From Antedon mediterranea (Eukaryota; Echinodermata; Crinoidea; Comatulida; Antedonidae), in the NCBI RefSeq assembly GCF_964355755.1, contig NC_092677.1:24522101-24586100 (forward strand): a stretch of DNA of 64,000 bases, read 5' to 3'. A program made the position numbers and the translations under genes. The notes beneath the pieces are model-generated. The model made no database searches. It was not told the origin of the DNA and saw nothing but the letters and a program-made list of their open reading frames with translations. Shown one piece after another: positions 3,416 through 57,303 of the stretch; within the stretch, counting starts at the first letter, position 1; every line of letters starts with the position of its first letter.

Positions 3416-3462
3416 TTTTTTTATATGGCGCAATTAAAATCTAACCTTTGACATGGGGTCAA

Positions 3463-12024: not shown

Positions 12025-12552
12025 TAACATAATGGAGGATAGATTTACAGACTTTCTTCAAGAATTCAGTGATGCCTATCCTGGGGAAGATGTACAGGAG
12101 ATTACTTCTACATGATCACCTACCGATTGGTAAATTAGCATGTGACAACTTAGGAATGAATTTATTTACTGAACTCAAGCATAAAGGCCTTATCGCATAC
12201 CATGATGTTAACATTATGTCAGAAATTGCAGAATTGACAGAAAATACTGCTGCAAAAGCCAGTGTAATGAGATACAAACAAGACGTTGTTGAATATTATG
12301 ATGGTTTCGGTCAGTATCGGGCAAGTTTGAAGGAAAGGCGTAAACAACTTTATAAAGCTATGTGTAGTATAACTGAAAATAAGGGGGGTGATTTTCACAA
12401 ATTGATTGCGTTCTACGGACTGCGTTCATACGGATTTACAAATAAATGGGATTTAGTATTTTATCTGGAGAAATAACTCAAATTAGATACACAGGTGAAG
12501 TTGAAGAGATTTGCCAATCAGTTAAATGAAGGTGCAAAAACGATATTACTTA
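12025..12552 (+). pseudogene. Copy B exon 1: tandem DED, frameshifted
   Basis: The acceptor 'actttcttttacag' precedes 'taacataatgg'; the ATG at 12032 matches that of copy C. MEDRFTDFLQEFSDAY runs into a stop at 12113 after about 5 bases are lost relative to copy C. The remaining DED sequence continues in another frame (NLGMNLFTELKHKGLIAYHD, then RASLKERRKQLYKAMCSITE and FTNKWDLVFYLEK) to a TAA at 12474 that replaces an Arg-type codon. The donor GTACGT at 12553 is still intact. The hydrophobic pattern fits two successive death-effector domains, as in copy C. Confidence 0.75.
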
Positions 12553-12695
12553 GTACGTATTCAAACCATTGTATTGTTGGAGGTAAAGGAACAACTACTA
12601 CACTGCAAGGTTGGTTTTATACAATATATTTACTAACAATTAACAAGGTCTACGTGTAGTAGTAAATGCATTTATTATTTTTTTTCATTATTTAG

Positions 12696-12740
12696 AAACA
12701 TCAATGTCAAACCGAATCTACAATAAACCAATTTATACTT
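12696..12740 (+). pseudogene. Copy B linker exon
   Basis: A 45-bp open segment between acceptor 'ttcattatttag' and donor 'gtaagtatg', phase 1 on both sides, reading TSMSNRIYNKPIYT after the split codon. It occupies the position of the 75-bp linker exon in copy C but has little sequence similarity to it. It is supported mainly by splice sites and phase. Confidence 0.4.
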
Positions 12741-13027
12741 GTAAGTATGACATTAGTAAAGTCTTGTAAGAATGATATTATTTGTAAAACTGTTATTATT
12801 ATAATACTGTAAAGTAAACTCTTTAAATTGTATAGATGAGGGGGTCAATTTTATTTCTTTATAACACGAATAACTTTCTTTTTATTATTGAACATTATTT
12901 AACGACGGTAACCCCAAACAGAGTTGGCTGCATAAGGTCCAATATCAATACAAATAATATGAGTTATTATTATGATGCAATTAAAAATTGTTATTAATAT
13001 TTAAAAATTCCTTTTGCTTCTTTATAG

Positions 13028-13111
13028 CTCTGATTGTTGCTTTCATCGTTCTTTTATTAAGTATCGGAATCTCAATAAAATACTATGGTTTTGACCACAA
13101 ATTGACAGAGA
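13028..13111 (+). pseudogene. Copy B transmembrane exon with GC donor
   Basis: After acceptor 'ctttatag' the phase-1 frame reads LIVAFIVLLLSIGISI, a clear membrane helix, then KYYGFDHKLTE. The donor is 'gaga|gcaagt', a GC-AG type site; the equivalent end in copy D is 'gaag|gtaagt'. The 84-bp length keeps phase 1 at both ends, so it can join directly to the NACHT exon at 13300. The helix would place the DED and NACHT parts on opposite sides of a membrane. Confidence 0.6.
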
Positions 13112-13299
13112 GCAAGTATATTTTAATAGAATTTGTTATAGTACAGAAATAATAACTACGGCGTACTACATGTCATGAATATCTTGTCTATGGTTTTAAA
13201 AGAAAGGATTGGGCGTCATTCAAATCAGAAAATTTATATTCTATTTAACATGATTGCACAACAGATGGCCAAACAATTTTGAATTATTTTTAATTTCAG

Positions 13300-16259
13300 A
13301 TGAAATTATTAGAAACTTTCTGATAGCAGAACAGAAATTCCAATTCAGGAAACCAAACAAACCACCGCCGACGTGGCAACACAATTATAACATTTCACAG
13401 ATGTTTACCGATCCAGTGTTACATATTAAGCACAAACACATGAAAGAGGGAACACAAATACCATTAAAAGAACTTTTAGGTGTTGTCAAATCCATGGATT
13501 CATGTAAAGTATGCATGACGGGAAATGGAGGAATTGGTAAGACGACTTTACTTCAGTATATATCTTACAACTGGGCAACTGATTCAGATTCTACGTTTGC
13601 TGGTAAAATATTATTTCATATAAATATAAGAGATATCAAGGCAGGTCAAACAATTACAGATATGATTATAGAGCAAGTTAGGCTTCCTATTTTGAGTAAA
13701 CATACCCGACTCCCAAAAAATAAAACAATTATAGAAACGTTTATAGAGAGTAATGACAAAGAATTAGTTGTGCTGTTGGATGGATTAGATGAGTTAGAAT
13801 ATGGTGTTGTGGGCCCAAAAACGATATTAGAGGGCGACGAACTGAGGGAAAGCACAGTTATTATGACATCACGACCGGGTTTTGCTGGAGACTTACTTAA
13901 TCATTGCAATTTAGATGTTAAAGTAAAAGGGTTTTCTGAAAATAATATCAAGGCATATATTCCAAAATATTTTAGACTTGTTGGAACACCTGCGCTTGGT
14001 GATTCATTGAATGAAGAATTTAAACTTGATTCACAAGATGAAGATGATTGGGGTGGTGATCACAAAATAATATTTGAACTCTTGGACTCCCCTTTTTTGT
14101 TACTTAATATGTGTACTATATGGCAACATGAAGAAAAAATTCCTAACAATTTCCAACATTTTTTTATAGAAATGTTTCTTTGCATTTTAAATCAGTACCT
14201 TAACAGAAATAGTACTTCAAAAGCAATACCAAAATGTGACGACTTTCCGGAAGAATTTAACAATTCCATTCGAATAATAGGACATATTAGTTACATAAAA
14301 CTACAGACAAATTTACTCCATTTTACTAATTTGGAAAACTAGTAAAAAATAAAACTTTAGTTGACTTATCTCTTAAATTAGGTTTTGTTTACAAAGATAA
14401 CCCACCTGTTGTTCAAAACGAATTCTCGGAGACTTACCGATATCCACATAAGTTACTGGCAGAGGCCCTAGCAGGTTTGTACTTGTCTTATAAAAGTAAA
14501 TTTGAAACATTAGATTTTAAGGAAAGTGATGCAATAAGAACCAATGCGTATCTAGATATGACAAGAGTGTTTACAATTAGTTTTCTAGGTCCCAATGCGG
14601 ACAAAATTATGAAACACTGGTTAGTGAACAATGCTTCTCATTATTATTCATTTTCAAAGTATTTTAAGTTTGTAAATAAAGAACACGAAAAACAAGTATT
14701 AGAATCACTGGATGAACACATGTCCGCAGACATGAAATTACAAGTTGAAAGTTTAAAACAATCATTTATGACGTTTTTAGGTCACAGCAATTTACATTTC
14801 ATACAGCTTTTGAAATTATTTCATGAAGAACTGACAAATAATTTAGAAAACAAAGTTATAGTTGAAGTGTGTACATACATACGTGAATCAACTGAAAAAT
14901 CTTCTGAAGCTATTTGCAGGCTTGTAGCGCACGTCTCAATAATAATACAATTACATCATTATGAAAACCCGGATGTATTAAACAGAGGCGATTCTTATTT
15001 ACTGTTACTAGTTCACAAATGGGGTAATACAGCTATTGAGATTCTTTCAAACGAATGGTCTCGATACCATTTAAGTGAACAAATACACTCACTTGCTTTA
15101 TCTGAGGATGATTGGGTTAACGAATTTTTGGAAACCAACACTACATTTATGCGCGGTTATGTTATTGGTGCACGTTTGTTGTGCAATTTTTTTCAAATTG
15201 TTCCTAACCTTCAATTTCTTTATATGACATCCGGTAGCATTCGATATAAAGGTAAACTTATTAACGAAATGATAACCGAATGTAAAAACAGCAAAGTGTT
15301 TTTAAAATTAAGAGAATTTAACCTCATGAACAACGATTTAACATGTATCAATGGAACGTTATTAGGTCACATAATGAATATTTCTAATCATTTTGCAAGT
15401 TTTGATTTAGCTAATTGTAAATTATCTGGTTCACAAATAAAAAGTATGTTTACAAAATATGATATGACTTATTTAAAGTCCAAAAATATTAAGGTTAGTT
15501 TAGATATAAATGATATTTCCGATATTGATATTAATTCACTTATTAGTCGTATTAGAAGGTTATGATAACACGTTACGTTGGACTAGTTATGATTTATTAG
15601 CCAAACACCTGCACGGACTTCTGATTTTACCTATGAAATACGAATTTTTAAAATGGAAAACTGTTGATTTTAATAGTGTAGATCTGTCATCAATTAATGG
15701 AAGTATAATTGCAAACATTTTTCTTATATTTCCAAATTTAAAACATCTTTCTATGAATAATTGCAATTTAGCAGGTACCACTATTACTGATATGCTAAAT
15801 ACATGTCAAGAAATGAATATTAAATTGAAAGAAAATTCAATATCACTAATAAACAATAACCTGTCTAATATTGAAGGTAAATCACTACTTAAATTACTGT
15901 ATGTCATGACGTCAAGTAGTTACAAATTCCCATCAACAATAGCATGGAGGCATTATGGTTTAACAGTTGAAAATCTTAAAGACATATTACATCGATCTAA
16001 TAATAATAAAATGTTTAAATGGCGAACTATCGATCTAGCGGGTATTGATTTATCTTCAATTAATGGCTCTACACTAGCCAGAATATTTAAATTATTTCCA
16101 AACTTGAGTTATATAAGAATGAAACTCTCGAAAGATATTTATCAAGATATGTTGGAGGAATGTGATAAACTTGGTGTTGTAATAAAATTAAAAATTACAA
16201 TTGACTTAGTGCAAACAACATTTCCTCCATTACAGTTTTTGGATGATAATGAAATTTAG
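13300..16259 (+). pseudogene. Copy B NACHT-LRR exon, two frameshifts
   Basis: It starts after acceptor 'tttttaatttcag' with (D/N)EIIRNFL, as in copies C, D and E. It carries Walker A GNGGIGKTT (about 13528-13554), Walker B VVLLDGLDELEYG, MTSRPGF and SPFLLLNMCTIW. The first frame stops at 14341 because about 7 bases are missing relative to copy A. The second frame is open from about 14342 to 15565 (NACHT-associated helices and first LRRs), and a third frame carries the last LRRs to 16259. It has only about one LRR super-unit, far fewer than copies A, C and E, which suggests the array was never expanded here or has contracted. Confidence 0.85.
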
Positions 16260-19168: not shown

Positions 19169-19178
19169 TTCGAACACT

Positions 19179-19196: not shown

Positions 19197-19202
19197 ACAG
19201 AG

Positions 19203-27005: not shown

Positions 27006-27081
27006 TTTAAAACGACGCTTAAACTAATGCGATTATCTTTGTGTTTTTGCTACTAACGCCGAAAGCTGACATTTCTAAAAG

Positions 27082-28290: not shown

Positions 28291-28833
28291 GTACCATAAT
28301 GGATGCTAGATTTAGAGATTTTCTTCAAGAATTCAGTGATGCCTATCCCGGGGATGAGGTACGGGAATTGAGATTTCTTCTGCAGGATAACCTATCGATT
28401 AGTGTATTATCTAAGAAACACAACTTGGGAATGGATTTATTTACACAACTTGAGCATAAAGGCCTCATTACATACAATGATGTTAACATTATGTTAGAAA
28501 TGGCAGAATTGACAGAAAATACTGCTGCAAAAGCCAGGGTAATGAGATACAAACAAGACGTTGATGAAAATTATGATGGTTTCGGTCCGTATCGGGCAAG
28601 TTTGAAGGAAAGGCGTAAACAACTTTATAAAGCTATGTGTAGTATAACAGAAAATAAGGGGGGTGATTTTCACAAATTGATTGCGTTCTACAGAGTGGGT
28701 CCATACGGATTTACAAATAAATGGGATTTAGTATTTTATCTGGAGAGAGAACTCAAATTAGATATACAGGATGAAGATAGTGTTACGAAATTTGCCAATC
28801 AGTTGAATGAATGTGCAAAAAGGAAATTACTGG
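28291..28833 (+). CDS. Copy C exon 1: tandem death-effector domains
   Basis: The acceptor 'cacttttcttacag' ends at 28290, so a 5' UTR exon must lie upstream. ATG at 28299 (context ATAATGG). DED 1 spans about residues 5-85 (FRDFLQEFSDAYPGDEVREL, then MDLFTQLEHKGLITYNDVNI), and DED 2 about 103-177 (LYKAMCSITENKGGDFHKLI, NKWDLVFYLERELKL). The spacing of helices (F..LL, L.FL, .LF..LE..G.I...N) matches DED. The RxDL motif of classic DEDs is not conserved in either. The exon ends in phase 1 at donor 'gg|gtacgt'. Copy B exon 1 is the closest relative; copy D has a diverged version. Tandem DEDs are typical of caspase-8 and FLIP rather than NLRs. Confidence 0.7.
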
Positions 28834-31800
28834 GTACGTATTCAAACAATTGGTAACATTATTCCAACGTTTAACGTTGACCACGTTTTTAGGTTTTAGA
28901 GATCTTTAGTGGCTTTGGTCTGTAATTAGAATCCCTCTAACTATAAAAACCGATACTTGGATTCGTCTTTACAATTTTTAGTCGCGTGCACTCTACACCT
29001 CACTATGTCGGTCGGTCGGTCGGTCGGTAAACACTAACTTGTACATGGCCTTGTCTTGATATCAGTTTCATCTAGGTAAGTCAATTTTTCACAGTATATT
29101 CCTTATGACCAGGAATCGATGTGGTTATGTTTTCACGGTGCGCAATCAAAAATTACGCGGTCTACGCATGATTTAACGAAATCACGTTTGTAATCATATC
29201 TTCACAAGCATGAATCACAATTAAATAAAATTTGGTAGTTTTAAATTTCAGGGCATAAATCATCATATGGCAATACAATTACGTACGTAGCGCATAACGC
29301 ATGAGTACGCGCGCTTAAAATTTTCAAAATTGTAAAAATATAAATATGAACTCTTTTTGCCCGATTTCTGTTTTACAACCTTTCTTTAATAATATCATCA
29401 TAATATTTGATTCACTTTTCAACTCGAAATTACGTTATACGAGCACGTCAACCATGACAGGCTACGCACGAGTAAATTAAAAAAAATATAAATGTTTTTA
29501 AACATTTTCTACATTATTAACATGTTCAGCAATTTCGGTCGGTTGGTCAGTCAGTTGGTCGGTAAACACTAACTTGAGCACGCGACTGCAGCCATCTGTA
29601 TGGTCCTGTTGATATTATTCGATTGCATTGTGGATTTAAAGGCGGCACGAAGAATGGAGCTTTAAATAGTTCAAATTAATTGAATACCTAAACAATTGAT
29701 CATTAGTAGTAGTAAATACAATTGTCTGTTTAATCCATAATAAAATATGAAATTAAATTTGGTTGTATTATTAAAATTAAAAACAAAGGTCATGTTCTCT
29801 ATCTTTTCTTGTCACATGCAAGTGACGCATGCACTTGTGATTATTGTTAAAACGTAGTTTTTTTAGTGACATAGTGTCTTTAAAAAATATATAAATAAAA
29901 TTTACAATTATTAAAAACATTTACTTATGACCTACATACAGTATATATACAGACATGCTGAATATTGCGGATTTCATATATTATTACAATTGTCTAAAAA
30001 CACATAATCAATGTTTACATTTAAACTTATACAGCATATTTCACGCTAATATATAATACAATTGTAAATCGTAGGGAGAGAGATCTCCAGCACATATTTA
30101 TTTTAATAGGTCAATAGGTCAAATATCTTGTCTATTTTTCCATTTCTGATCAGTAGTATAAAAGTTATACGAATACTTATTATTTATAATTTCATTTTTA
30201 AACAGACCCCAAATATTTGCAGATTCTCTTTTTTCTGTCCTTTCCAGTTCTTTATATATTTTATATAGAGGATTTATATATACAACAAGTAAAAACTGAA
30301 ATCCTAATGTTCTTTTACTTGCTTAGATACAGGTGAACAACAAGTTGATGTAGTTAAAAACGTAGACATTGAATTACCAACAACAGCAATAACAAAAACA
30401 GGTATGTAAACCAGTTTAGCTGATTGATTTTTAGTAACATGATCAAACAATTTTTGATATTATTCGATTGCATTGTGGATTTAAAGGCGGCACGAGGAAT
30501 GGAGCTTTAAAAAGTTCAAATTAATTGAATACCTAAACAATTGATCATTAGTAGTAGTAAATACATTTGTCTGTTTAATCCATAATAAAATATGAAATTA
30601 AATTTGGTTGTTACTATTTTGTTTGTCTTTTATGAGCTCGTCCCACTTTTATTTCAGTCTGCTGTACAAATTATTGAAATAGGCCTATATACAAGTTCTC
30701 TAGGCCCTATATAAGGCATAGAATATGTATGTATATTCTCTTGTATAATATTAAAATTAAAAACAAAGGTCATGTTCTCCATCTTTTCTTGTCACATGCA
30801 AGTGACGCGTGCATGTGATTATTGTTAAAACGTGTTTTTTTAGTGACATAGTATCTTTAAAAAATAGATAAATAAAATTTACAATTATTAAAAACATTTA
30901 CTTATTACCTACATGCAGTATATACAGACATGCTGAATATTGCGGATTTCATATAGTACTACAATTGTCTAAAAACATAATCAATGATTACATTTAATTG
31001 GCACTTTATTGGCCGCGAGAACTGTGACAGAGCCATGATTTGAACCCAGAACCCAGGCTTGTTAAGCAAGTAAATCCGACACCAAAGGATCCACAGATCA
31101 GAAACTTAAATATTTTGCTCTGTATTTCTTTTTTATACGTATGTTTTTGTGTCTTGTATTTTATAATCATTTCCTATAACAGTCAGACTTCATCTTTTTT
31201 TAAATCAATAATATTGTTATACTATACAGTACATCAAATGCAGTACAGTACACGGTTTGTGATGTTGTTAAGACATCAATGTTAACATTATGTTTCTTTA
31301 TAGTACTGGTTGTTGCTGTTGTCATCGCTTTCATCGCTGTTGTCATCACTTTCATTGCTGCTAGGCCTATAGGAGGTGATGATTTATCTTTTTTTTTTAT
31401 GGTTAGGTTGAGGGTTAGGTTATGGTCTATCAATACTAGGTGATACACGTGAAACACATATGATGCTATAATTCAAATGACACTGGAGAAATTTAGATAC
31501 AGTATCAAGAATCAGTTGCACGTCACGAGTAAAATCCATCTGTCATGATTAGGTTAGTCATATGGCATATGACACAGGCATCACATGTGATACATATATG
31601 ACATTATTACAGAATTGTATAAAGTGATATACATGGACAAATTATACATAATGTATTAAGTACTGACATTTGGTAGGGAGAACGGTATGAGGGAAATAGT
31701 GAACCTCCAGGAAACCACTGTCAGGAGGCCAATGGGTTTTGATTAAATGTAATGTTTATTTTGTCGTAGGCCTATAATCATTCGTTTATTTAAATGATTT

Positions 31801-34800
31801 TCTAATTTGTTTGAGCAGTAATTATTTTGTATTTTATTTGTCTTTTAACTTAAATGTAACTGTTTATTTTGACATTTTATAACAAAATTATTATTTTTAA
31901 ATATTAATTGTGTTTTGCCTACTATACTAAGTACTGTATTTTTTTATTTTATTAATCTTTTAAATGTTAATTGAATTATAGGTCGACCAAATGCGCCTAC
32001 AGTCACACTGTTGGAACAAAACCTCACTTCCATCACACTACGCATAGAAGACCCTGAATACACCGGTGATCTTGACCTAATTTTCTACAATGTCAGCTTT
32101 AAATATGAAAGTAGGGGAAAGGATGTCGTTGAATTTAATATGTTTGATTACAGTAAGTCTTCATCAATTAAGTAAAATAAAAACAAACTATTGATTGGCA
32201 TTGATATCGTAACCAAGGGCTGCACAGAATTTGTTTTTTATTTCTTTTTTTTTTTATATTATTCCACCAGAGGATAAAAATGAAGAAGATTTTCAAAATT
32301 ACACAATCAAAGGACTGTTAAAAGCGAAACCATACAAAATCAGAGTAGCTGGCAAGAATGAATATATGTTAGGAGACCAAAGCGAAGAATTATACGCTAG
32401 AACACTAACAGAAGGTAGGTATCGTTATTTCATGAAGGATACATAACTTAAGATTTCAGTACAACAATCCATTAGACTTAGGTACCATCAAAAGGTTGGT
32501 ACTGTGGGAAAAAAAAGACTTTCTAAATACAAAAAAAGTTATCTGTTGCAGTTAAATGCACATGATGGTAAATATTACATAGTTGGAAACAAATCTGTAT
32601 TGCCACCTGGCTGAAAATGAAATGCGACAAAGGCTGTACAGTAAGATCAACCAAACTCTGTAAACCAAGGATTGGTCCAATCCGCCATGTAAAAACCCAA
32701 CGAAACTGAGCAAACATTAATGCAATGAAAATTGTGTGTAAATTTAATAACTTATTTAAACATGCAGTAAAACACTTAATTTAATACTTATACAGTACTG
32801 TATAATAGGCAAATATAATAGTAGAAAAACAAATGAAATGACAAATAAATAATCAATAATATGATATTGTATTAATAATTCTAATAAATATTGTGAATTG
32901 TGAATTAATAATAATTGTGATATAAGAGTTTAGTAATTAATTTTAATTCTAATTGTCAAATTCATTAAAAAATATATGGAAATATTAGAATAAATTGTCA
33001 AAATAGTTAGGGTTGGGAAGGGCATGGTTTGGAAGAGGTCAGTAAACCATGCACATTCTGAGTCACTTGTGAATTCAACAAAAATAATAATTCTTCACCA
33101 ACCATAATTATATTTTATAATAGATTTCAAATATTAAATTCCTTTTGAAACTTTACGCACTTTGACCTTTTGTAATTGATCACATTCTACAAGTGAATAA
33201 TTATATTTTTCAATTTTGGATAATCCAACATGTTTAGATTCAATATAATAACTAGGATAATGATAAATCTCATCTCTATTATTTTGAAACATATAATTTG
33301 CATAATAAATACCAATGTAATGTCTAATGCGAATATTTTTTAGCATCTTCAAGGAAAGTCTTTAAACAGTGATTGGGTTCACTTTTGACAATCCTGGCTT
33401 TTTGTTTAATTTTGTATTTTTATGTATTCTGTTGTAATTGTAATGAGCCGATATTGAATAAATCAAATCAAATCAAATCTGGGAGATAATTTTCATAGAT
33501 ATATTACAAAGTATTGGACCAAGGATGGACTCTTGTGGAACATAACAATGGGAAATGAATTTTCATCAACATTGTTATTGACCAAAGAACATGCCTATTG
33601 AACATTTATTAAACATATGCATACAATAAACAATATTCAATTCAATGGGTACGTAGATACTTACGTATAAAGTATCGGTATGTGACAAAAACAATCAATT
33701 GAAAAATGTTTTGTTAATTTACTAATGTAGGCCTAATATTGTATGTATTTGTTGTTTTATAATAATACAAAAATCTTCACCAACCATATATTAATTACAA
33801 AATCCTATTTATACGATTGTGACATTATAATTAGATAATGAGATATGGAGATTTAAGCCTTTGGACAAATCAAAGAAATTTCAGATTGTATTTATTTAAT
33901 TATTTGCAATCATAAGCATGTTTACAATAGGTTGATATATAGCAAGGTTGTAGTTACTGTAAAATGATAGTATTTCTAATGCAGAGAATAATGGATAACA
34001 ATTATTTCTGTTTTCAGATGAAATTATCCGAAACTTTCTAACAGAAGAACAGAAAAGGAAATTCCAAGATCCAAACATAAATCCGCCGACGTGGAACGCA
34101 TATTTTTTTAATTACAATATTTCACAGATGTTTACTGATCCAATATTAACTTCAACAATGTTGAAGGAGCGCAACTACCCGAATCTAAACATCTCAAAGA
34201 ACCCATCAGTAAAAGAACTCTTCAATGTTATCAACTCAATGGACTCGTGTAGAGTATTGATGACTGGAGATGGAGGAATCGGTAAAACAACTTTACTTCA
34301 GTATATATCTTACAACTGGGCAACGGATTCAAATTCTACATTTGCCGGTAAAATATTATTTTGTATAAATTTAAGGGACATCAATAAAAGTGAAACAATC
34401 ACAGATAAAATTGTTGAGCAAGTTTCACTAAAAATGCTTCATAAAACTACCGGTCTTCCTGAAAATAAAACAATTATAAAAAGGTTCATAGAAAAAAACG
34501 ACAGGGAATTAATAGTATTGTTAGATGGATTAGATGAGTTAGAATATGGTGTCGTAGGAGCAGACAAGTTATTAGAGGGTAACGAACTGAGAGAAAGTAA
34601 GGTTATTATTACATCACGACCAGGTTTTTTATTAGACAAATTTAAACATTACGATTTAGATGTAACAGTAGAAGGGTTTGCTAAAAAAAATATAAAACAA
34701 TACGTTCTAAAATATTTTACCAACAACCATACACGTGGTCAGTTATTAATTGAAAAATTAAAACTTGATTCGATGTTTAAAAGTGATTGGGAACTCTTGC

Positions 34801-37800
34801 AATCCCCTTTTTTGTTACTACAAATGTGTACCATATGGAAACACGAAGAAAACATATCCACAGATGTTCATCAATTTTTTAAAGAAATGTTGCTTTCTGT
34901 TTTAAATCAGTATATTAACAGAAGTGGTACTTGGAAAGCGATAAAAACATTGGATCACATTCCATCGAACTTTAACCATTCCATTCTATTATTAGGAAAT
35001 ATTAGTTATATCAATTTACAGACAAATTTACTTCATTTTACAAAAACTGATTTAACACAGCTACAAGAAAATGAAGATATAGTTGACTTATCACTTAAAT
35101 TAGGTTTTGTTTACCAAGATAAACCTACTGTTGAAAATTCTTTTTTCGAGACTTACCGATGTCCACATAAGTTACTGGCAGAGGCACTAGCTGGGTTTTA
35201 TTTGTCTCACAAAATTCAATTTGAGACTTTAGATTTTAAAGAAAGTGAAGAAATAAGAACTAACACGTATCTACATATGACTAGAGTGTTCACAGTTAGT
35301 TTTCTAGGTTCCAATGCTGACAAACTCATAAAACACTGGGTGGTAGACCATGCTTCTAATTATTACTCAATTTCGAAATATTTCCAATATGTAAATCAAG
35401 AACACGAAGAAAAGGTATTAGAATCACTTGATGAGCACATAAATGAATCGAAAGAAATAACGTTACAAGTCGAACGCTTAACGCGTTCCTTTACAACGTT
35501 TTATAATAAAAAGTTACACTTCATACATTATTTGAAATTGTTACATAAAGAATTAACATCAAGTAGTGGTTACTCACTGGTAGACAAAAGAATTATGAAA
35601 TTTATAAATGAATCAACTAAAGAATCATCTGAAGATATTTGCAGGCTTGTAGCACACGTCTCAATAATAACAACACAACATATGAATGGAAGAATTGACT
35701 TATATTTACTGTATCTATTTAATAAATGGGGTGATACAGCTATTAAGATTCTCTCAAATGAATGGAGAAGATGTCATTTAAATGAAAACATACAGGAATT
35801 GTATTTTCCTCACCCCAATCCCACTTTTACTAGTTCGAATGGCACACATTTAGGTCGTTTTCTTCAAATTGTTCCCAACCTTCGATTTGTCGACATGAGC
35901 CACGGTGGTTCTATATATAATGGTAAGCTTATTAACGAAATGTTAACCGAATGTAAAAACAGTACAGTGTTTTCAAAATTAACGGAGCTTGATCTCAGTC
36001 ACAATGATTTAAGAGATATAAATGGAACATTATTAGGTCACAGAATAAATAATTCTAACCATTTGAAAAGTATTGAATTAAGCTCTTGTAAATTACATGG
36101 GACACATATAAATAGTATGTTAAATGAAATAAATGATCGGAAGTTAAACAATATTACCATTAAATTAGAATACAATGACCTTTCAGATATTGATGGAGAT
36201 TCACTCCGAAAGCTGATAGATGTACACTTTCATAGTGAACATTTACATTGGAAGGATCGTTATAATCTATCAGCCAAAAACTTACAAGCTCTTCTGATTT
36301 CAGCTCAGAAGTACCGATTTTAAAAAATTCGTTTTTTTGGATAATGTAGACCTATCATCAATAAATGGAAGTACATTAGCTAACATTTTTATTATATTTC
36401 CCAATATAAAACATCTTTCTATGAAGAAATGTACTTTAGTAGGTAGCACTATTTCTGATATGCTAAATACACAAATATCTAGAAGCAAGCATGTGAAGGA
36501 AAATGTTGCAAATTATTTAGAATCTAAAAAAATTGTCATTGATTTAGACAAAAATGACCTTTCAGATATTGATGCAGATTCACTCGGAAAGATGATAGAA
36601 GTAGAATTTTATATTAGAAGACATGTTGAATTGTTTCATTTACGTTGGAAAGATTATTATAATCTGTCAGCCAACAATTTACAGGATCTTCTGATTTCAC
36701 CACAGAAGAACAGATTTTTAAGAGTCCATAGTGTTAATTTGGGTAATGTAGACCTATCATTAATTAATGGAAGTACACTAGCCAACATTTTTGTTATATT
36801 TCCAAATATAAAACATCTTTCTATGAAGAAATGTAATTTAGTAGGTAGCACCATTTCTGATATGCTAAATACACAAATATCTAGTAGTACGCATGAAATT
36901 AGTATGTTGAATGTTGCAAAGTTTCTAGAATCTAAACAAATTTCTATTGAATTAGTCGAAAATGACCTTTCAGATATTCATACAGATTCACTCGGGAAGT
37001 TGATAGTATTATTGAAACATGAATATCATTATAATGATTATTATGATGGTGATTATCGTAATAAAAAATGTAATCGTGGTGGTGTTTTGAAGTTACTCTG
37101 TTGGAAAAATTATAATTTATCAGCCAAGCATTTACAATCTCTTCTAATTTCACCGCAGAAGTACACTTTTTTAACATTCGATATTGTTGATTTATATTAT
37201 GTAGACCTATCCTCAATTAATGGAAGTTCACTAGCTAACATTTTTATTATATTTCCAAATATAAAAAGTCTTTTCATAAATAATTGCAATTTAGTAGGCA
37301 GCACTATTTCTGATATGCTAAATACAGAAATATCTAGTAGTACGCATGTAAATAGTAAGTTGAAGGAAACTGTTGTAAAGTATCTAGAATCTAAAGAAAT
37401 TGAAATTGGATTAACAGGAAATAACCTTTCAGATATTGATGTAGATTTACTCGGGGAGTTGATAGTGTTGCATCAAAGAGTTTATCTTGATGATTTATTT
37501 TGGAACAATTTTAGTTTATCAGCCAAACACTTACAAGTTCTTTTAATTTCACCTATGAAATACAGATTTTCTATATTGCAAACTGTTGATTTGGAATTTG
37601 TAGACTTATCATCAATTAATGGAAGTATACTAGCTAACATTTTTATTATATTTCCTAATATGAAGCATCTTTCTATGAAAAGTTGTAATTTAGTAGGCAG
37701 CACTATTTCTGATATGCTAAATACACAAATATCTAGTAGTACGCATGTAAATATGTTGAAGGAAACTGTTGCAAATTATCTAGAGTCCAAAGAAATTACC

Positions 37801-38616
37801 ATTAAATTAAGCAGAAATGACCTTTCAGATATTGATGTAGATTCACTCAGGAAGCTGATAGAAGGCGCACTAAAACCACCTAAATTAGGTTTAGAACCAA
37901 TAGTGGATAGTTACACTTTCTCTAAAAGTTTCAGTCTAATTTGGAGTGAGTATAATCTATCAGCCAAACACTTACAAGATCTCCTGACCTCACCTTTGAA
38001 ATACAGGTTTAATGAATGGCGTTCCATTAATTTGGATTTCGTAGACTTATTATCAAGTAATGGAAATACACTAGCTAACATTTTTGATGTATTTCCAGAT
38101 TTAACCCATATTTATATGAATAATTGCAGTATAGTAGGCACCACTATTACTGATATGATAAATGAAATGAATATTGAATTGAAAGAGAATTCAATATCAC
38201 TAATTAACAATAACATTTCTAATATTGATGGCGAATCACTACTTAAATTATTGTATGTTATAAGAAACGATGAATACAGATGCTCAGAAACATTAGAGTG
38301 GAGGAATTATGGTTTAACAGGTGAAAATCTTAAAGATATATTACAACGACCTAATGATGTTATATTGAAGTGGAAATATGTCGACCTGACGGATATAGAT
38401 CTATCTTCAATTAGTGGCTCTACGCTAGCCAACATATTTAAATTATTTCCAAATTTGACTTACATAAGACTGAAAATATCAGACAATATACAGCGAGATA
38501 TGTTGAAGGAATGCGTTGAACTCAGTTTTCCATTAAAAAATATCACAATTGATGTTTCAATTTCCTCTGGACAGTTCTGCCTTCAACGAGAGATAAAAGA
38601 AAAAAGGGACGTTTAA
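28299..38616 (+). CDS. NLR copy C: tandem DED-TM-FN3-NACHT-LRR gene
   Basis: Gene model from six coding exons: 28299-28833, 30327-30401, 31304-31375, 31982-32152, 32271-32414 and 34018-38616. Every intron is GT-AG and phase 1, and each internal exon is a multiple of three (75, 72, 171 and 144 bp), so frame is kept throughout. Predicted order by residue: tandem death-effector domains about 1-178, linker 179-203, membrane helix 204-227, FN3 228-332, NACHT from 333 (Walker A near 415, Walker B near 501), then LRRs to about 1865. DEDs recruit other DED proteins such as initiator caspases, NACHT is an ATP-driven oligomerisation switch, and LRRs usually sense ligands. The helix between DED and NACHT would put them on opposite membrane faces, which is hard to square with usual NLR signalling. 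A one-base frameshift at about 36321 truncates the LRRs unless it is a sequence error. RNA data are needed to confirm the exon joins. Confidence 0.75.
28980..29587. mobile_element. MITE-like element F2, long copy
   Basis: Termini 'agtcgcgtgca' and 'gagcacgcgact' are inverted repeats. Inside each end lie CGGTCGG repeats and 'cggtaaacactaactt' (about 29000-29040 and 29537-29575). A compact relative of 77 bp is at 44048-44124. No coding capacity. Confidence 0.6.
29612..30010 (+). repeat. Intronic duplication, copy 1
   Basis: From 'gatattattcgattgcattg' to about 'acacataatcaatg' it is nearly identical to 30455-30990 in the next intron. Copy 2 has an extra insert of about 135 bp (about 30609-30745). 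The leading part also occurs at 47850-47930 in copy D. Confidence 0.8.
30327..30401 (+). CDS. Copy C exon 2: linker
   Basis: 75-bp phase 1-1 exon after 'ttacttgcttag' and before 'gtatgtaaacc'. It reads TGEQQVDVVKNVDIELPTT and continues AITKT, an acidic, Thr-rich spacer. The end of the equivalent exon in copy D (47752-47799) keeps EDFGLPRTAK and the same donor block 'ggtatgtaaacca', supporting the model. Confidence 0.65.
30402..31303 (+). other. Copy C intron 2
   Basis: Contains the second copy of the intronic duplication (30455-30990). No coding segment seen. The acceptor is 'tgtttctttatag'. Confidence 0.6.
30455..30990 (+). repeat. Intronic duplication, copy 2
   Basis: Matches 29612-30010 with a 135-bp insert ('ttactattttgtttgtc' to 'ctcttgtata') splitting it near 30609-30745. 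Confidence 0.8.
31304..31375 (+). CDS. Copy C exon 3: transmembrane helix
   Basis: 72-bp phase 1-1 exon between 'tgtttctttatag' and 'gtgatg'. The frame reads LVVAVVIAFIAVVITFIAA then RPIG, an uninterrupted hydrophobic run of about 20 residues with Arg at its end. The homologous exon in copy D (50886-50966) differs by 9 bp in whole codons and keeps hydrophobicity; copy B has an unrelated-looking helix at the same place. This argues that the membrane segment is selected. The topology of DED versus NACHT around it is unknown. Confidence 0.65.
31982..32152 (+). CDS. Copy C exon 4: FN3, first half
   Basis: 171-bp phase 1-1 exon after 'ttgaattatag', before 'gtaagtct'. It begins RPNAPTVTLLEQNLTSITLR and continues EDPEYTGDLDLIFYNVSFKY. 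P..P.V......TSI.L....P...G.....Y.V.Y is the A-C strand pattern of fibronectin type III. The usual core Trp of strand B is replaced (LRIEDPE). FN3 domains are commonly split by an intron at this point. Confidence 0.8.
32271..32414 (+). CDS. Copy C exon 5: FN3, second half
   Basis: 144-bp phase 1-1 exon after 'ttatattattccaccag', before 'gtaggt'. It reads FQNYTIKGLLKAKPYKIRVA then GKNEYMLGDQSEELYARTLTE, matching the FN3 E-G strands: Y.I.GL....PY.I.V...N..G....S.....RT. It ends LTE-G/D, the same join used before NACHT in copies B-E. FN3 is mostly extracellular; directly in front of NACHT it is unusual. Confidence 0.85.
33384..33479 (+). mobile_element. LINE-like 3' tail
   Basis: 'cgatattgaataaatcaaat' followed by (CAAAT)n is a common 3' end of non-LTR elements. 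No coding part remains upstream. Confidence 0.4.
33480..33570 (-). mobile_element. Scrap of LINE reverse transcriptase, minus strand
   Basis: The reverse complement of about 33481-33548 reads VPQESILGPILCNISM, the conserved VPQGSILGPLLFNIY motif of non-LTR RTs with changes. Only about 30 codons remain. Confidence 0.55.
34018..38616 (+). CDS. Copy C exon 6: NACHT and LRR, one frameshift
   Basis: Begins DEIIRNFLTEEQKRKFQD after acceptor 'gttttcag'. Walker A is GDGGIGKTT at about 34265, Walker B LIVLLDGLDELEYG at about 34510, and sensor-like ITSRPGF at 34610; SPFLLLQMCTIW and the helical region follow. LRR super-units are anchored at 36436, 36838, 37291, 37690 and 38131. The first frame ends at 36323; the second, open from before 36337 to 38616, is displaced by one base. 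The break lies in 'gattttaaaaaattc', where one extra T relative to the other copies explains it, so an assembly or sequencing error is a real alternative to a mutation. One LRR (about 37016-37087) carries an Asn/Asp/Tyr/His-rich insertion. The end, LKNITIDVSISSGQFCLQRE, matches the end of copy A. Confidence 0.88.
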
Positions 38617-46945: not shown

Positions 46946-47476
46946 CATTATCAAAAGAGGAATGTAGCCTATTGAAAAGTTCTGTGGCAAACTGGTTTGA
47001 CCAACGTTGTTCAATCAGTATGATCAAAGTTTTGTACGAAGAGTTGGTGACTAATAAAACTGACTTACATAAATCTACTACAATGATGGAATTGATCAAC
47101 TTGGTAAATACTTTTAATGGATTTAGTCAAAATGATCCAAGTATTTTACTTGCGACAATAAATGTTACTGGGCAACACGGCATATGGAACAAAATAGAAA
47201 AATTAAAATTACCTGAGCTACGTCAAACAAGAACAGTATCAATGTTCAGTGAATTTAGACAGAAGGTAATGAGGCTCGGATTAAAAATGACAGATAGTGA
47301 AGTACAAAGGATAAGTCATTTGTATGAAGAAACAAAGTTTAGAAAGTATGACGATAGCTGGAGTTTGATTATTGATCTTGAACGTAACGCCCACTTATCT
47401 AATGAAAACATGACGAGGTTCATTAGAACGTTAAGCGAGAATAGTCTCGGTCATTTGATATACACTATAGATGGCG
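46946..47476 (+). CDS. Copy D exon 2: diverged tandem death-effector domains
   Basis: 531-bp phase 1-1 exon between 'ttttataatttacag' and 'gtatgt'. It opens (A)LSKEECSLLKSSVANWF. DED 1-like: SMIKVLYEELVTNKTDL then MMELINLVNTFNGFSQND. DED 2-like: MFSEFRQKVMRLGLKMTDSE then DDSWSLIIDLERNAHLSNEN. Helix spacing (L..LY, LI.LV/LI.LE, S..N) matches DED and the second half aligns with DED 2 of copy C (DLVFYLER versus SLIIDLER). Sequence identity to copy C is low, so this is an older branch of the family or a different N-terminal exon type. No stop codon interrupts it. Confidence 0.6.
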
Positions 47477-47751
47477 GTATGTATTACATTTTATCATGAT
47501 ATTGTTTATTTATACTATAAAATTAAATTTACTAACCAGTATATCTAATTAAGAAATTCACATTACTGAATTACGAATTTGTACAGATTTGCACATTTGA
47601 GGATGCCATATTAGCACAAACGTGGTTGTTTGCACATTTAAGTGCAAAATGTTTGCACAAAAAATAGTGTTTTTTGCACAAATGTGACTTTCTGCACATT
47701 TCACGGCTAAACAAGCCTCCTAATGTTTCTTTTACATTTTAATATATACAG

Positions 47752-47799
47752 TTGTAATCGAAGACTTTGGATTACCAAGAACAGCAAAAAGAGGTACCG
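47752..47799 (+). CDS. Copy D exon 3: linker
   Basis: 48-bp phase 1-1 exon after 'ttttaatatatacag' reading VIEDFGLPRTAKRGT, before 'gtatgtaaacca'. The end and donor match copy C exon 2 (DIELPTTAITKT, 'gtatgtaaacca'). Confidence 0.6.
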
Positions 47800-49029
47800 G
47801 TATGTAAACCAATTTAGAAAAATCCTTTTTTTTAACCTTATCAAACAACCTTTGATATTATCGATTGCATTGTGGATTTAAAGGCGGCATGAGGAATAGG
47901 GTTGTAGATTTTCAAATTAATTGAACACTTATAAAAGCACAATTTGTTCATTACAAGCATCTAGTCATCAATTTCAGGATGAGAAACAAGCCCATGCCTT
48001 CTAAACCTGAAGTATAATTTGAGCCAAGGTATAAGTGGCACTTCATTGGCTGTTTTTTTTATTTTTTTTATTTAATCGGTATAAAAATACTCAAAATACA
48101 ACTCATAGTTGAAATGAAGAGCTTACATATGAAAATGATAATTCACATAAACAAAGTTAAACGAAGAAAAAACACATTAAAGCCTATGAAACAGTAATAA
48201 TTAATGTATAATTCGTTAAACTTAAAATTACTATAAAAAATGCACAAATTCTTAAATATATACAATTTTAAAAAATAGAGACTAATATTAATAATCACAT
48301 TATTTTTATACACCAATAAAATATATGTAAAATTCATTAAACTAAAAGTACAATAAAAATTGCACAAAATTCAAATTCAAAGGATGATATTAATAATTAC
48401 AAATTCTTATATTATATTTACAAATTTAAAAAATTGAATCTTATAAATCACATTTTTATAGTCCCATAAGTAGTTACAAAAAAAAATTTAAAGCATAAAA
48501 CAACCACTTGACAAAGAGACAATAGAACATACTCTTCGAAATGTCTTTAAAGGTTAATTGTCCACACGGAACTGTGACAGCCGTGATTTGAAGTCTATCA
48601 AACACCAAGGGAGAAACTTACAGTATATCTTTGGTTCTGATGCGTTGTTGTCTTTTGTTTTATAATCATTTCCTTTAATTCATTCCTAATTATAGTCGGT
48701 TTTATTTTTGTTTAAATCAACAATATTGTTATACAGTACATCAAATGCAGTACAGTACTCGGTTTGTGATGTTGTTAAGACAACAATGTTATTCGTGTGT
48801 TTCTTTAAAACATGTGTGGTTCTCCTGTTCTTTTGGTGTCAGAATTTACATATTTATTTTCCGGTCTAACACAACAAATATCTCTATCAGTGTCCCTGAA
48901 GTAACAAATATCAATAATTTATATTTAATCTACAAAAACGCGCCCTCGGGATTTGTGCAGGGACATTGTGACTATCCCATACGAAACCCTTATTTACCTC
49001 CGCCAAGGAGGTATATGTAATCGGTAGCG

Positions 49030-49160
49030 TGTGTTTGTTACTTGGCCAAATTGAAAATTGGCCAAGTATGTTGATCTGTTTGGTTTGTGTGTTTGTTTGT
49101 TACTTGGCCAAATTGAAAATTGGCCAAGTATGTTGATCTGTTTGGTTTGTGTGTTTGTTT
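49030..49160. repeat. Two 62-bp units with a TTGGCCAA-type hairpin
   Basis: 'tacttggccaaattg' paired with 'ttggccaagta' occurs at 49039-49068 and again at 49101-49130, each followed by 'tgttgatctgtttggtttgt'. Just upstream (48996-49012) is the palindrome 'acctccgccaaggaggt'. Confidence 0.85.
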
Positions 49161-49321
49161 TGTTTGTTTGTTTGTTTGTCATCACTCTAGCGCTCACAGT
49201 TTTGATTCGAATGACTCCACATTTCTACCATACATGTCACCTGCTGCAAGGACGACACCACCCAATTTTGGTTAAAATCCGGACCACGGTTCCAATTCTG
49301 GACTAAAATTAAAACTAAAAT

Positions 49322-49590
49322 TGCATTTTCTCGAGAACTAGGCCTACATGTCCAAAAAACTTCAGTTTTGTACAAGAGGCAAGAGTTATAATTTGTGATT
49401 TGTAATTTTAAAACTTAATTAGATTTAATGTACAGGTTTTTTAATGCGAATAGTTTAAAAACCCTATTTCTTTTCAAATTCACCCGTTTGATTTTCGCGT
49501 TGCTGTTCTATTGTTAGCCAACTGAAGCTATTGTTAATTGAAAGGCTTGTTACATAACCATTACACCAAACTCGCATACACATGCTTGTA
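49322..49590 (+). repeat. Dispersed repeat R1, copy 2
   Basis: Aligns with 2362-2610 along its length, same orientation. No shared open frame. Confidence 0.7.
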
Positions 49591-50885
49591 ATGAAATTAG
49601 CCTAAATCACAAACAGCATTAAGACACACACAATATATATATATATATTTTTTTTACCGGAGAAATCTTATGTAGGAGAATTTTACAGTAGGCTGAGGTA
49701 TGCCCTCTCGGAGTGGCTTTCTAGTTTCATAATTTAAAACTCTTAACATCTTTGATTGTTGATTTGCAAATCAACAATCTAATAAACATGACCATAAGAT
49801 TTTCTAAATGTAATGTCTTGCCTGAAAAACATATATCTTTATCCAGACAAAATTAAATTTTCTATAATGGCCCTAATTTATGGAATTCTTTTAACAATAC
49901 AATAAAATAAATAATAAATAAAACGATTTCTTCTTTTAAACGTAATATTTTAAAAAAAAATGAATATTTGGTAGTGTAATTTTTGTGTTTATTTATATAA
50001 TAATAATATAATAGTGGGTGTACCTGAATGGTTCTCGGAAACATGGCCAATGCCTCTGAAAAACGGCTGACACCTATGCATATGACTATGAGTTTGCATG
50101 TTTCAATATACTAAATTCACAATGTATAGGCCTAGATATGAAATGTATCAGTACATTAATATTAATTATGTCTCATGTCAGTTAAAAATGTAAAGAAAAC
50201 TTGACAGCAATTGACCAGACCCATCATAAGCATTTTTTAAATAAGAAAATTGATGTGTTACATAAAACGTATATACGTATTTAAATGTGCACTGGAGGAA
50301 AACGTCAATTGAGGCTACACCGACACTAAAGTGCTTGACAGCCGGATGGGGGTGCTTAGCTAAATGCTAATTATTAAAATATGCACATTTTCCAAGTTAG
50401 CGTCACAATCATGTATTTTCAATACAAGTTGGATATCATATTTTATGGCCTTTCATTTGATATCAAACATTTGAATTAGTTAACATTATATAAATAAACA
50501 CAAAAAATACACTAAATATTAATTGTTTATAAAAAAATAATCAAATTATTCACATTTTTTTTTTTAATTACAAATGTTCAATACAAATTTGGTATCAGTT
50601 GATAGCATATTCTATGGGCGTTCATTTGATACCATACAGGCTGTCTATTGACATCTTAAAGAATAATTTAATTTTTTTCGGGGGGGGGGGGAAGGGAGTT
50701 CAAAGGTCAGTAATAGCATTTCCGGTCACTTTTTCGCAAAAGTTGTGTTAGACCAAAAAATAAATATGTGTATTCTGAACAAGTGGTTGTCAAGATATAA
50801 GAACACGTTGTTCTCCTCAAATCAGTCCTAAATTGAAATGCATACAAATCTTACTCAGGTCCTAGACTACCTAGACTACTTAAAG

Positions 50886-50966
50886 TACTGGCTGCTGTCA
50901 TCGCTTTCATCGTTGTTGTCATTGCTGTTGTCATTGCTGCTGTCAACGCTGCTAGTCCTATCAAGG
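50886..50966 (+). CDS. Copy D exon 4: transmembrane helix
   Basis: 81 bp, phase 1-1, reading LAAVIAFIVVVIAVVIAAV then NAASPIK, before donor 'agg|gtaagt'. Homologous to copy C exon 3 with three extra codons. Its upstream pyrimidine tract has been displaced by the 2.07-kb insertion, leaving only 'gactacttaaag', so recognition as an exon is doubtful now. Confidence 0.5.
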
Positions 50967-51463
50967 GTAAGTATATTTATGGTTTTTATGGTTAGGTTGA
51001 GGGTTAGGTTATGGTCGATGATACTAGGTAATACAAGTGAAACACAGGCGATGCTATATTCCTATACGATGCTGGAGAAATCTAGATACATCACCAAGAC
51101 TCGGGTGCACATGAGCAAAATCCCTGTATTGTGTTTAGGTTAGGCATATTGCATATGATACAGGCATCACATGTGATACATATCTGAAGTTGTGTTAATT
51201 ACATAATTCCTCTGTGATATTCATGAACAAATTATACTATAGTGTATTAAGTACTGACATTTGGTAGGAAGAAAGGTATGAGGGAAATAGTGAAACCTCC
51301 AAGAAACCTACTATCTGGAGGTCAATAGGTTTTGATTAAAGTTAATGTTTATTTTGTCTTTGTTATTTTATTTATCCTTTTAAACCTATTGTCTGGAAGT
51401 CAATAGGTTTTTGGTTAAATTTAACTGTAAATCATTATTTTGTTATTATAAATTATTTTTATT

Positions 51464-51661
51464 TTGCCTATTATAAGTACAAGTATTTTTGTCTGTTATG
51501 CATCAACACTAAACGCGGATGATGATGTTAAAGTTGTATTCTATGACGATCTAGTACGAGTATTGAATGATATTCACAAGGAAGAGAAACTGATTATTTT
51601 AGGAGATTTCAATTCAAGAGTAAATGAATCTGATTCGGAATTGTTGTTTACAATGAATTAA
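51464..51661 (+). mobile_element. Relic of LINE AP-endonuclease domain
   Basis: The frame reads CYASTLNADDDVKVVFYDDL then EEKLIILGDFNSRVNESDSE. Y.P........F...L.......ILGDFN.R.G is the signature of the endonuclease-exonuclease-phosphatase domain of LINE ORF2. Only about 60 codons remain. It lies where the FN3 exons sit in copy C. Confidence 0.7.
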
Positions 51662-51803
51662 TAAGTTGTAATGGTGGGCATTGTCATCATAATTGAAAAG
51701 TGAGATATTGAGATCAAAGGCTTTGCAAGAAAATGCAAATCATATTATAGTAATGATAATGAGAATAAGAAGAAGAATGGATAACAAATATTTTTCTTTT
51801 CAG

Positions 51804-52703
51804 ATGAAACTATCCGAAACTTTCTAACAGCTCAACAAAAAAAGAAATTCCAAAACACAAAACTGTCAACGTTGGACCCAAGTGTAAAATACAATATTTC
51901 ACAGATGTTTACTGATCCAATATTAACGCCAAAAATATTAAATACGTATAAATACACGGATCTAAAAATCGGAAGTCACCTATCATTAGAAGAACTATTA
52001 GACAAAATGATGTCTATGGACTCGAGTAAAGTATGCATAACTGGAAAAAGAGGAATTGGTAAGACAACTTTACTTCAGTATCTGTCTTACAACTGGGCAA
52101 CAAATCCGAATGCTGCATTTGCTGGTAAAATATTATTTTTTATAAACGTGAGAGACATCAAAGCAGAAAATACCATTACAGATACGATTGTACAAACAGT
52201 TCCAATGAATACATTTAATGTAAAAACCGGTCTTCCTAAAGATAACTCAATTTTAAAAACGTTTATGGAGAAACGGAGCATGGAATTAATTGTGCTGTTA
52301 GATGGAATAGATGAGTCAGAAGATGATTTCAAAGAACTAGTAAATATATTGGATGGAAACGAACTGACAGAAAGCACAGTTATTATTACATTACAAACAG
52401 GTTTTGAAAAAGATTTACTTGATCATTGCGATTTAGCTGTACAAGTAGAAGGGTTTTCGAAAATGAATATAAAGACATTTATTCAAAAACATTTCAGATT
52501 CGTCAAAACAACTGCACTTGGTGATTCATTGATTGAAGAATTAAAACTTAATTCGAAGTCTGAAATAGATTGGGGTGGTGATCACAAAGCAATATTTGAA
52601 CTCTTGAAATCCCCTTCGTTGTTACTTAAAACGTGTACCATATGGGAACGCGAACAAAAAGTGCCAGATTCAAACCAGATTTTAGACCATCAATTGACAG
52701 AAG
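51804..52703 (+). CDS. Copy D exon 5: truncated NACHT with new 3' splice donor
   Basis: Starts after 'tttttcttttcag' with DETIRNFLTAQQKKKF. Walker A is GKRGIGKTT (about 52043) and Walker B is changed to LIVLLDGIDESEDD. The sensor-like SRPG becomes ITLQTGF. NACHT homology ends near 52663 (CTIWEREQKVP); a short tail DSNQILDHQLTE and donor 'gaag|gtaagt' follow. The tail resembles the end of the copy B TM exon (GFDHKLTE), so the 3' end looks recombined. The phase-1 end fits the start of the copy E NACHT exon. Without splicing the frame stops at 52750. Confidence 0.75.
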
Positions 52704-57010: not shown

Positions 57011-57303
57011 ATGTTTCAACGCAGTATGGCTGTAAATACTTATTTATAATTATGTGGAAAAACAATCAATTGAAAACAAAAATCGTTTCCATTTACTAAT
57101 GTAATATTCTATGTATGTTTTTCTATTGTTGTTTTACAATAATACGACAATTATTCTTTACCAATCACTATTAATTAAGAGATTCTGACAGATTGAGATA
57201 TAGAGATCGAAGGCTTTGGACAAATCAAAGAAAATTTTGCAATAAGCATACTAGGCCAAATGATGTAAGGAAAATAATGGTTAACAATTATTTTTCTTTT
57301 CAG

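What the first reader, a model, noticed from the sequence alone, without database searches (positions are those of the whole stretch)
28299..38616. Membrane-spanning NLR: tandem DED, TM helix, FN3, NACHT, LRR
Seen: six exons, all joined by phase-1 GT-AG introns, give one frame with two DED-like domains, a 20-residue hydrophobic helix, a split FN3 domain, an intact NACHT Walker A/B and a long LRR array. Known: NLRs are normally soluble, carry CARD, PYD or single death-fold N-termini, and tandem DEDs belong to caspase-8/FLIP-like proteins. Inference: this is a distinct NLR architecture, possibly anchored in the plasma or an internal membrane, with an extracellular-type FN3 next to NACHT. I know of no described NLR with this order, but I could not search.
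Basis: partly seen in the sequence, partly recalled or inferred. Interest (0 to 1): 0.9.

Follow-up and report, generated by a model that had tools for sequence, protein, structure and literature searches.

The report
Membrane-anchored death-domain NLR in feather star
A feather star carries immune sensor genes that join cell-death adaptor domains, a predicted membrane helix, a fibronectin-like domain and an NLR sensor body in one protein; the layout recurs in sister genes, but the copy in this window has a break in its reading frame.

Summary
They give tandem DED, a hydrophobic helix, a two-exon FN3 domain and NACHT. The "one frame" claim fails: the NACHT exon stops at 36321-36323 inside the repeats, which continue in another frame to 38616. 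The genome is Antedon mediterranea, a crinoid. The plan is not an artefact of this locus: a dispersed copy 10.5 Mb away splices the same six exons into 1081 residues, identical to an NCBI protein, and a second NCBI protein (1082 aa) has the same plan. The FN3 pair occurs at five genomic places, four upstream of a NACHT exon of this family. A hydrophobic exon also lies between DED and NACHT in sister genes without FN3; it is clear in C9 genes (one NCBI model contains it) and weaker in three short C8 genes. FN3 thus looks like a later insertion of phase-1 exons. Membrane NLRs (sea anemones, sponges, sea cucumber Ig-TM-NACHT) and DED-NACHT proteins are already published; my searches listed no report of this combination. 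A new variant of a known kind. Insertion, orientation and function are inferred; whether this window's own copy works is doubtful.

The parts
28299..28833 (+). Exon 1: start codon and tandem DED (178 codons), phase-1 donor
30327..30401 (+). Exon 2: 25-residue linker, phase 1-1
   Evidence: GT-AG; homologues in L029, L033, L036, L039 by tblastn
31304..31375 (+). Exon 3: predicted transmembrane helix VLVVAVVIAFIAVVITFIA, phase 1-1
   Evidence: GT-AG; KD 3.33; helices of the three FN3-type sisters and D 2.90-3.62
31982..32152 (+). Exon 4: N-terminal half of FN3, phase 1-1
   Evidence: Pfam fn3; exon and splice sites kept in 4 copies
32271..32414 (+). Exon 5: C-terminal half of FN3, phase 1-1
   Evidence: as exon 4
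34018..36323 (+). Exon 6: NACHT (Walker A GDGGIGKTT, Walker B LLDGLDE) plus first LRR-like repeats, ends at TAA 36321-36323
   Evidence: Pfam NACHT 2.8e-18; NLRP3 chain at 0.0011; frame
36298..38616 (+). Rest of the LRR-like repeat array, open for 772 codons but in another frame than exon 6
   Evidence: 1 of 11 repeat units picked by a pattern breaks the frame
3445..7662 (+). Paralogue A: NACHT lacking its 5' part including the P-loop, then LRR-like repeats
12032..16259 (+). Paralogue B: DED exon with a frame break, hydrophobic candidate exon inside 12985-13150, NACHT and repeats in several frames, no FN3 found
46947..52750 (+). Paralogue D: another tandem-DED-like exon (46948-47484), linker-like 47750, TM-like exon about 50885-50968, NACHT cut short; no FN3 found
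57303..61958 (+). Paralogue E: NACHT and long repeat array; no DED, TM or FN3 found upstream in the window

Best explanation
The locus is one member of an NLR subfamily of the feather star Antedon mediterranea with the plan tandem DED - linker - single hydrophobic helix - (FN3) - NACHT - LRR-like repeats. Shown: the exons and splice sites, an unbroken six-exon copy, and two NCBI proteins with the same plan. Inferred: the helix is a signal anchor that puts the tandem DED in the cytosol, and FN3, NACHT and the repeats on the far side of a membrane (cell surface or an internal lumen). Ligand binding by the repeats and FN3 would cluster the receptor, and the clustered tandem DEDs would nucleate a DED filament that recruits FADD- or caspase-8-like proteins, a death-receptor-like route without a soluble inflammasome. 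FN3 is a later insertion of two phase-1 exons. The copy in this window makes at most a product of about 1100 residues that ends early in the repeats, or is a recently broken copy.
For: My splice of the dispersed copy is identical to NCBI protein P0001, 1081 of 1081 residues; P0002, 1082 aa, has the same plan with a diverged but hydrophobic helix (KD 2.90). FN3 exon pair at five places, four upstream of a family NACHT exon (seven weaker rows at E 0.07-0.58 not counted). A hydrophobic exon or exon candidate lies upstream of NACHT in 13 of the 14 family loci that I examined, E being the exception. The FN3 type and D score KD 2.90-3.62. In a splice-aware scan C9 gaps score 2.64-2.72, against 0 of 32 control tiles at 2.8 and 4 of 32 at 2.35; P0003, an NCBI C9 model, contains the helix (3.07). 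NACHT dN/dS is 0.32-0.57 in 19 of 21 pairs, 0.89 in one and undefined in one. K+R in the 20 residues before and after the helix: 3 v 1, 3 v 2, 3 v 2 for P0001-P0003; 2 v 2 for gene C; 3 v 2 and 3 v 3 for two short genes. A sea-cucumber NLR with a reported extracellular NACHT exists (PMC13133943).
Against: Orientation: net flanking charge is mixed (P0002 0 v +1 and gene C -1 v +1 lean the other way), and an ATP-dependent NACHT outside the cytosol is odd. Helix in the three short genes B, S636, S674: only 2.07-2.22 in the splice-aware scan, where 9 of 86 control tiles reach 2.0 and 6 of 86 reach 2.2; the three are close kin. P0003 has a second hydrophobic stretch near its C-terminus (2.59). A splice acceptor lies just before the start codon in C and sister copies, so an upstream exon, coding or not, is possible; no signal-peptide or TM predictor was run. 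DED and FN3 exons show no clear purifying selection: DED 0.32-1.03 in 10 pairs, FN3a 0.18-1.29 in 6, FN3b 1.24-2.53 in 5 and undefined in 1; three tests against 1 were not significant. P0003 lacks the DED although a DED ORF lies upstream. Gene C is absent from the protein collection as searched. The two Anneissia relatives found have no such helix. No transcript data were available.
Confidence: 0.55

Rival explanations
1. The architecture is real in the family, but the window's copy is a pseudogene broken recently in the repeat array.
For: Stop at 36321-36323; 1 of 11 repeat units picked by a pattern breaks the frame; no near-identical protein in the collection, best hit 62%; copies A, B and D nearby look damaged.
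Against: NACHT is unbroken, and the product up to the stop (1100 aa) is about as long as P0001 and P0002 (1081, 1082 aa); the rest of the array is still open for 772 codons.
Confidence: 0.45
2. The frame break is a sequencing or assembly error in an A/T run and the gene is intact.
For: The break lies among A and T runs; the 772 codons after it remain open.
Against: The protein collection, as searched, holds no product of this locus; B and others nearby carry further breaks.
Confidence: 0.3
3. The hydrophobic exon is not membrane-spanning but a buried or oligomerising helix in a soluble NLR.
For: NACHT normally needs cytosolic ATP (established knowledge); the helix is only moderately hydrophobic in the three short genes.
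Against: 19-residue KD means of 2.90-3.62 in the FN3 type and D, kept hydrophobic while the sequence diverges (P0002).
Confidence: 0.2
4. DED exon and NACHT exon also occur in alternative transcripts, the linker-TM-FN3 exons being skippable, so that one gene gives soluble and membrane forms.
For: Exons 2-5 are phase 1-1 and multiples of three; P0003 has TM-NACHT without DED.
Against: P0001 and P0002 keep all exons.
Confidence: 0.3

Closest known systems
AjNLR-new, Apostichopus japonicus (PMC13133943; outline, abstract and passages seen)
   Same: Echinoderm NLR-like protein with TM helices, an Ig-type domain and a NACHT reported as extracellular
   Different: Ig domain between two TM helices and reported inside the cell; Ig-TM-NACHT without the DED of this gene; here one TM, with FN3 and NACHT after it and tandem DED before it
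AjNLRC4, Apostichopus japonicus (PMC8699970; passages seen)
   Same: Membrane NLR combining NACHT with a beta-sandwich domain
   Different: Extracellular Ig, intracellular NACHT, two TM; reported to lack CARD and LRR
Sea-anemone NLRs with N-terminal transmembrane helices (PMC5094078; passages seen)
   Same: TM helices before NACHT
   Different: 3-5 helices at the N-terminus; no tandem DED or FN3 mentioned for them in the passages seen
DED-NACHT proteins of amphioxus and sea urchin (PMC2575513; passages seen)
   Same: DED joined directly to NACHT in one chain
   Different: No TM or FN3 mentioned for them in the passages seen
Caspase-8 / cFLIP / vFLIP tandem DED
   Same: Two DEDs in tandem; profile matches cFLIP at 0.0018, model of DED2 aligns with PEA-15 and cFLIP
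   Different: Attached to TM-NACHT, not to a caspase-like domain

Membership tests
NLR (NACHT-LRR) | NACHT domain with Walker A and B | tested here: met
   Pfam NACHT 2.8e-18; GDGGIGKTT and LLDGLDE in the translation, motif names recalled
NLR (NACHT-LRR) | C-terminal leucine-rich repeats | tested here: inconclusive
   LRR_6 at 0.031, ribonuclease inhibitor at 0.27; LRR-like pattern by eye; most of the array out of frame at this locus
NLR (NACHT-LRR) | N-terminal effector of the death fold | tested here: met
   DED in 11 of 11 members of A3 at E up to 1; below Pfam's own cut-off in gene C
Tandem DED proteins | First DED | tested here: met
   Pfam 4.8e-6; profile to cFLIP 0.0018
Tandem DED proteins | Second DED | tested here: inconclusive
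Fibronectin type III | fn3 domain match | tested here: met
   1.2e-4 in gene C, below cut-off; sister piece 5.7e-6 above cut-off, full P0001/P0002 below it; NCAM1 3.6e-7; AF2 did not model it
Membrane-bound NLR (AjNLRC4/AjNLR-new type) | Transmembrane helix in a NACHT protein | tested here: met
   Hydropathy only
Membrane-bound NLR (AjNLRC4/AjNLR-new type) | Ig domain | tested here: not met
   Pfam names fn3, not Ig, so it is not filed as an AjNLRC4-type member
Membrane-bound NLR (AjNLRC4/AjNLR-new type) | Surface location and topology | not testable with these tools
   Needs experiment

The most novel reading that the evidence does not exclude
A crinoid NLR subfamily is built as single-pass type II receptors: FN3, NACHT and repeats face the outside or a lumen, and tandem DEDs face the cytosol, so that an NLR body works as the ectodomain of a death receptor and triggers a caspase-8-like pathway directly across a membrane. 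(Odds lowered from 0.30 after the splice-aware scan weakened the helix in three short genes.)
Probability: 0.27. Interest if true: 0.85.

Novelty: new variant of a known kind. Interest (0 to 1): 0.55.

Why it matters
NLRs are usually described as cytosolic sensors. A family that fixes tandem DEDs, a membrane helix and NACHT in one chain would link surface or lumenal sensing to caspase-8-type death in one protein. [quoted passage not shown] The FN3 insertion is a clean case of phase-1 exon shuffling in a fast-changing immune family.

Tried and rejected
Hydrophobic exon as chance. A first scan read each DED-to-NACHT gap without regard to splice sites: 7 of 7 gaps without FN3 reached KD 3.0, against 1 of 86 control tiles of 750 bp, 1 of 32 of 1600 bp and 0.4% of 500 shuffles of one gap. 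That overstated the case, because the reading ran past the acceptor. The splice-aware scan gives 2.07-2.22 for B, S636 and S674 and 2.64-2.72 for four C9 gaps; controls reach 2.0 in 9 of 86 and 2.2 in 6 of 86 tiles of 740 bp, and 2.35 in 4 of 32 and 2.8 in 0 of 32 tiles of 1650 bp. The loci are related, so counts are not independent. Chance is rejected for the FN3 type, D and C9, and not firmly for the three short genes.

Other points. 'All family members carry FN3': rejected, five FN3 places (21 candidates scored). Full-length AF2 model of P0001: mean pLDDT 58.9 with 14 sequences, FN3 not modelled; its Foldseek hits are NLRs (NOD2 1.8e-9). hhalign of the C-type DED profile with the D exon was weak (probability 5.7). 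Upstream hydropathy of eight NACHT loci of other subfamilies is not used: one orientation only was scanned and several lie on the other strand. The Ka/Ks rows with the TM of the 24.618 Mb copy used a wrong frame and are discarded. Own-genome searches for the C9-type TM and for fn3 did not complete. Homologue searches scored only the roughly 8000 candidates sharing most words; with a 5-row alignment gave only P0001-P0003 at E <= 1e-20; one search also listed P0006, a weak metagenome hit (9.2e-4) not followed.

Literature searches: 20 of 42 papers listed; 1 of 1; 15 of 101; 3 of 3; 4 of 4; 7 of 7; no listed title or abstract start named a DED-TM-FN3-NACHT protein. Only open-licence PMC papers are held. 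Passages were seen in PMC13133943 (also outline and abstract), PMC8699970, PMC11797021, PMC12909245, PMC5094078 and PMC2575513; the rest only in listings.

Full report
What the window is. It lies at 24522101-24586100 of contig C8 of a 354 Mb genome in 18 contigs. A protein I spliced from a sister locus of that genome is identical over 1081 residues to an NCBI 'uncharacterized protein [Antedon mediterranea]', so the organism is that feather star, a crinoid.

The observation. Pfam sees DED, fn3 and NACHT, the first two below their cut-offs. The second DED is below Pfam's sight in this gene; its predicted structure aligns best with DEDs of PEA-15, cFLIP and caspase-8, though Foldseek's own E-values are weak. 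The one-frame claim is wrong: the NACHT exon ends at TAA 36321-36323 and the repeats go on in another frame to 38616. Of 11 repeat units that a pattern picked in copies A, C and E, only this one breaks the frame. The repeats look LRR-like by eye, but Pfam and PDB support is marginal.

The neighbourhood. The window holds five family members: A (5'-truncated), B (frame breaks, no FN3 found), C (the finding), D (another tandem-DED-like exon, TM-like exon, shortened NACHT) and E (NACHT and long array, no upstream modules found). The genome has at least 103 NACHT matches and at least 150 places like the DED exon; both are lower bounds. The nearest relatives of the NACHT exon lie on C8 around 24.5-24.7 Mb, at C8 14.06 Mb, and on C9, mostly around 22.6-22.95 Mb.

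The architecture recurs. The 14.06 Mb copy has the six exons in the same order and splices to 1081 residues without a stop; NCBI's model is letter for letter the same. The copy at 24.650-24.664 Mb corresponds to NCBI's P0002, 1082 aa, same plan, with a diverged but hydrophobic helix. I do not know what evidence NCBI's models rest on. A third copy has linker, TM and FN3 at 24.616-24.619 Mb, the next NACHT exon at 24.627 Mb (7.7 kb on; that they belong together is assumed) and only a degraded DED fragment far upstream. A fifth FN3 pair lies at C8 26.85 Mb with 57% identity and no DED or NACHT listed beside it; I could not read it.

The helix is wider than FN3. I examined the region upstream of NACHT in 14 family loci. 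Thirteen have a hydrophobic exon or exon candidate: C, its three FN3-type sisters, D, three short C8 genes (B, S636, S674; DED and NACHT about 730-750 bases apart) and five C9 loci. E has none; A was not examined, nor were the other C9 genes. How sure each is differs. The FN3 type and D score 2.90-3.62. Four C9 gaps score 2.64-2.72 under splice rules (control: 4 of 32 tiles at 2.35, 0 of 32 at 2.8), and one C9 gene has the helix in an NCBI model (P0003, 3.07). The three short genes score only 2.07-2.22 (control: 9 of 86 tiles at 2.0, 6 of 86 at 2.2). The likely common plan is DED-DED-TM-NACHT, with FN3 inserted in a few copies. The two Anneissia japonica relatives found have no such helix, so it may have arisen within the Antedon line, on a sample of two.

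Selection and history. NACHT exons evolve under constraint: dN/dS 0.32-0.57 in 19 of 21 pairs, one 0.89, one undefined. DED and FN3 exons do not show it clearly (DED 0.32-1.03 in 10 pairs; FN3a 0.18-1.29 in 6; FN3b above 1 in five of six pairs with very few synonymous changes); three tests were not significant. Between gene C and the 14.06 Mb copy, synonymous change is lower in the DED exon than in the NACHT exon (9 of about 101 against 79 of about 241 sites, P 1.4e-6), which suggests exon-wise exchange among copies.

How it may work. Membrane insertion, orientation and signalling are inference. The two NCBI six-exon models begin at the DED, and slightly more K+R precede the helix than follow it in the three Antedon NCBI proteins, but not in gene C, and net charge is mixed. 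An N-inside anchor is the reading I commit to: DEDs in the cytosol, FN3-NACHT-repeats on the far side. That matches where DED partners live (established knowledge) and the reported topology of AjNLR-new (PMC13133943). An extracytosolic NACHT is unusual, so the reverse orientation or a soluble helix remains open; I ran no TM or signal-peptide predictor. P0003, a C9 model with TM-NACHT but no DED, shows that DED and NACHT are not joined in every annotated product.

What is known. Membrane NLRs: sea anemones, 3-5 N-terminal helices (PMC5094078); sponges (PMC12909245); sea cucumber Ig-TM-NACHT (PMC8699970, PMC13133943). DED-NACHT: amphioxus and sea urchin (PMC2575513). My searches listed no DED-TM-FN3-NACHT protein. 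The combination is new as far as those searches reach; the kind is not.

The window's own copy. Nothing near-identical to gene C came from the protein collection, which fits a locus that NCBI did not model as coding; a model outside 0.55-1.75 times the query's length would also escape. Its product up to the stop is 1100 residues, close to P0001 and P0002, so a working short form is possible.

Noticed in passing
window 19158-24218 (+): A Pao-type LTR-retrotransposon-like pair of adjacent ORFs of 624 and 1061 aa (DUF1759, aspartyl protease, Peptidase_A17, integrase zinc finger).
   Followed up: partly
window 57303-60711 and G000:C8:24626794-24630284: Paralogue E's NACHT exon is nearly identical to the 24.627 Mb copy: 0 synonymous and 5 non-synonymous differences in 406 codons, a very recent duplication or conversion; the wider stretch is 94% identical.
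   Followed up: partly
window 46948-47484 (+): Paralogue D uses a different DED-like exon (Pfam DED 5.1e-5) that by eye resembles the N-terminus of Anneissia japonica P0004, which carries an OTU domain before NACHT.
   Followed up: partly
G000:C8:26849435-26850150 (-): A diverged FN3 pair (57% identity) with no listed NACHT or DED nearby; possible donor of the FN3 cassette or a relic. Its letters could not be read.
   Followed up: no
window 62073-63998 (-) and 26478-27049 (-): LINE-like reverse-transcriptase pieces (RVT_1 3.8e-12 at 62960-63358); the pieces at 26478-27049 are judged by eye.
   Followed up: no
window 46583-46778: Perfect 13-base tandem repeat TATATAAAATGAC, 15.1 copies, just upstream of paralogue D.
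   Followed up: no
window 29609-30024 and 30454-30997: A direct duplication (158 bp at 98% and 287 bp at 91%) inside introns 1 and 2 of gene C, perhaps a repeat element.
   Followed up: no
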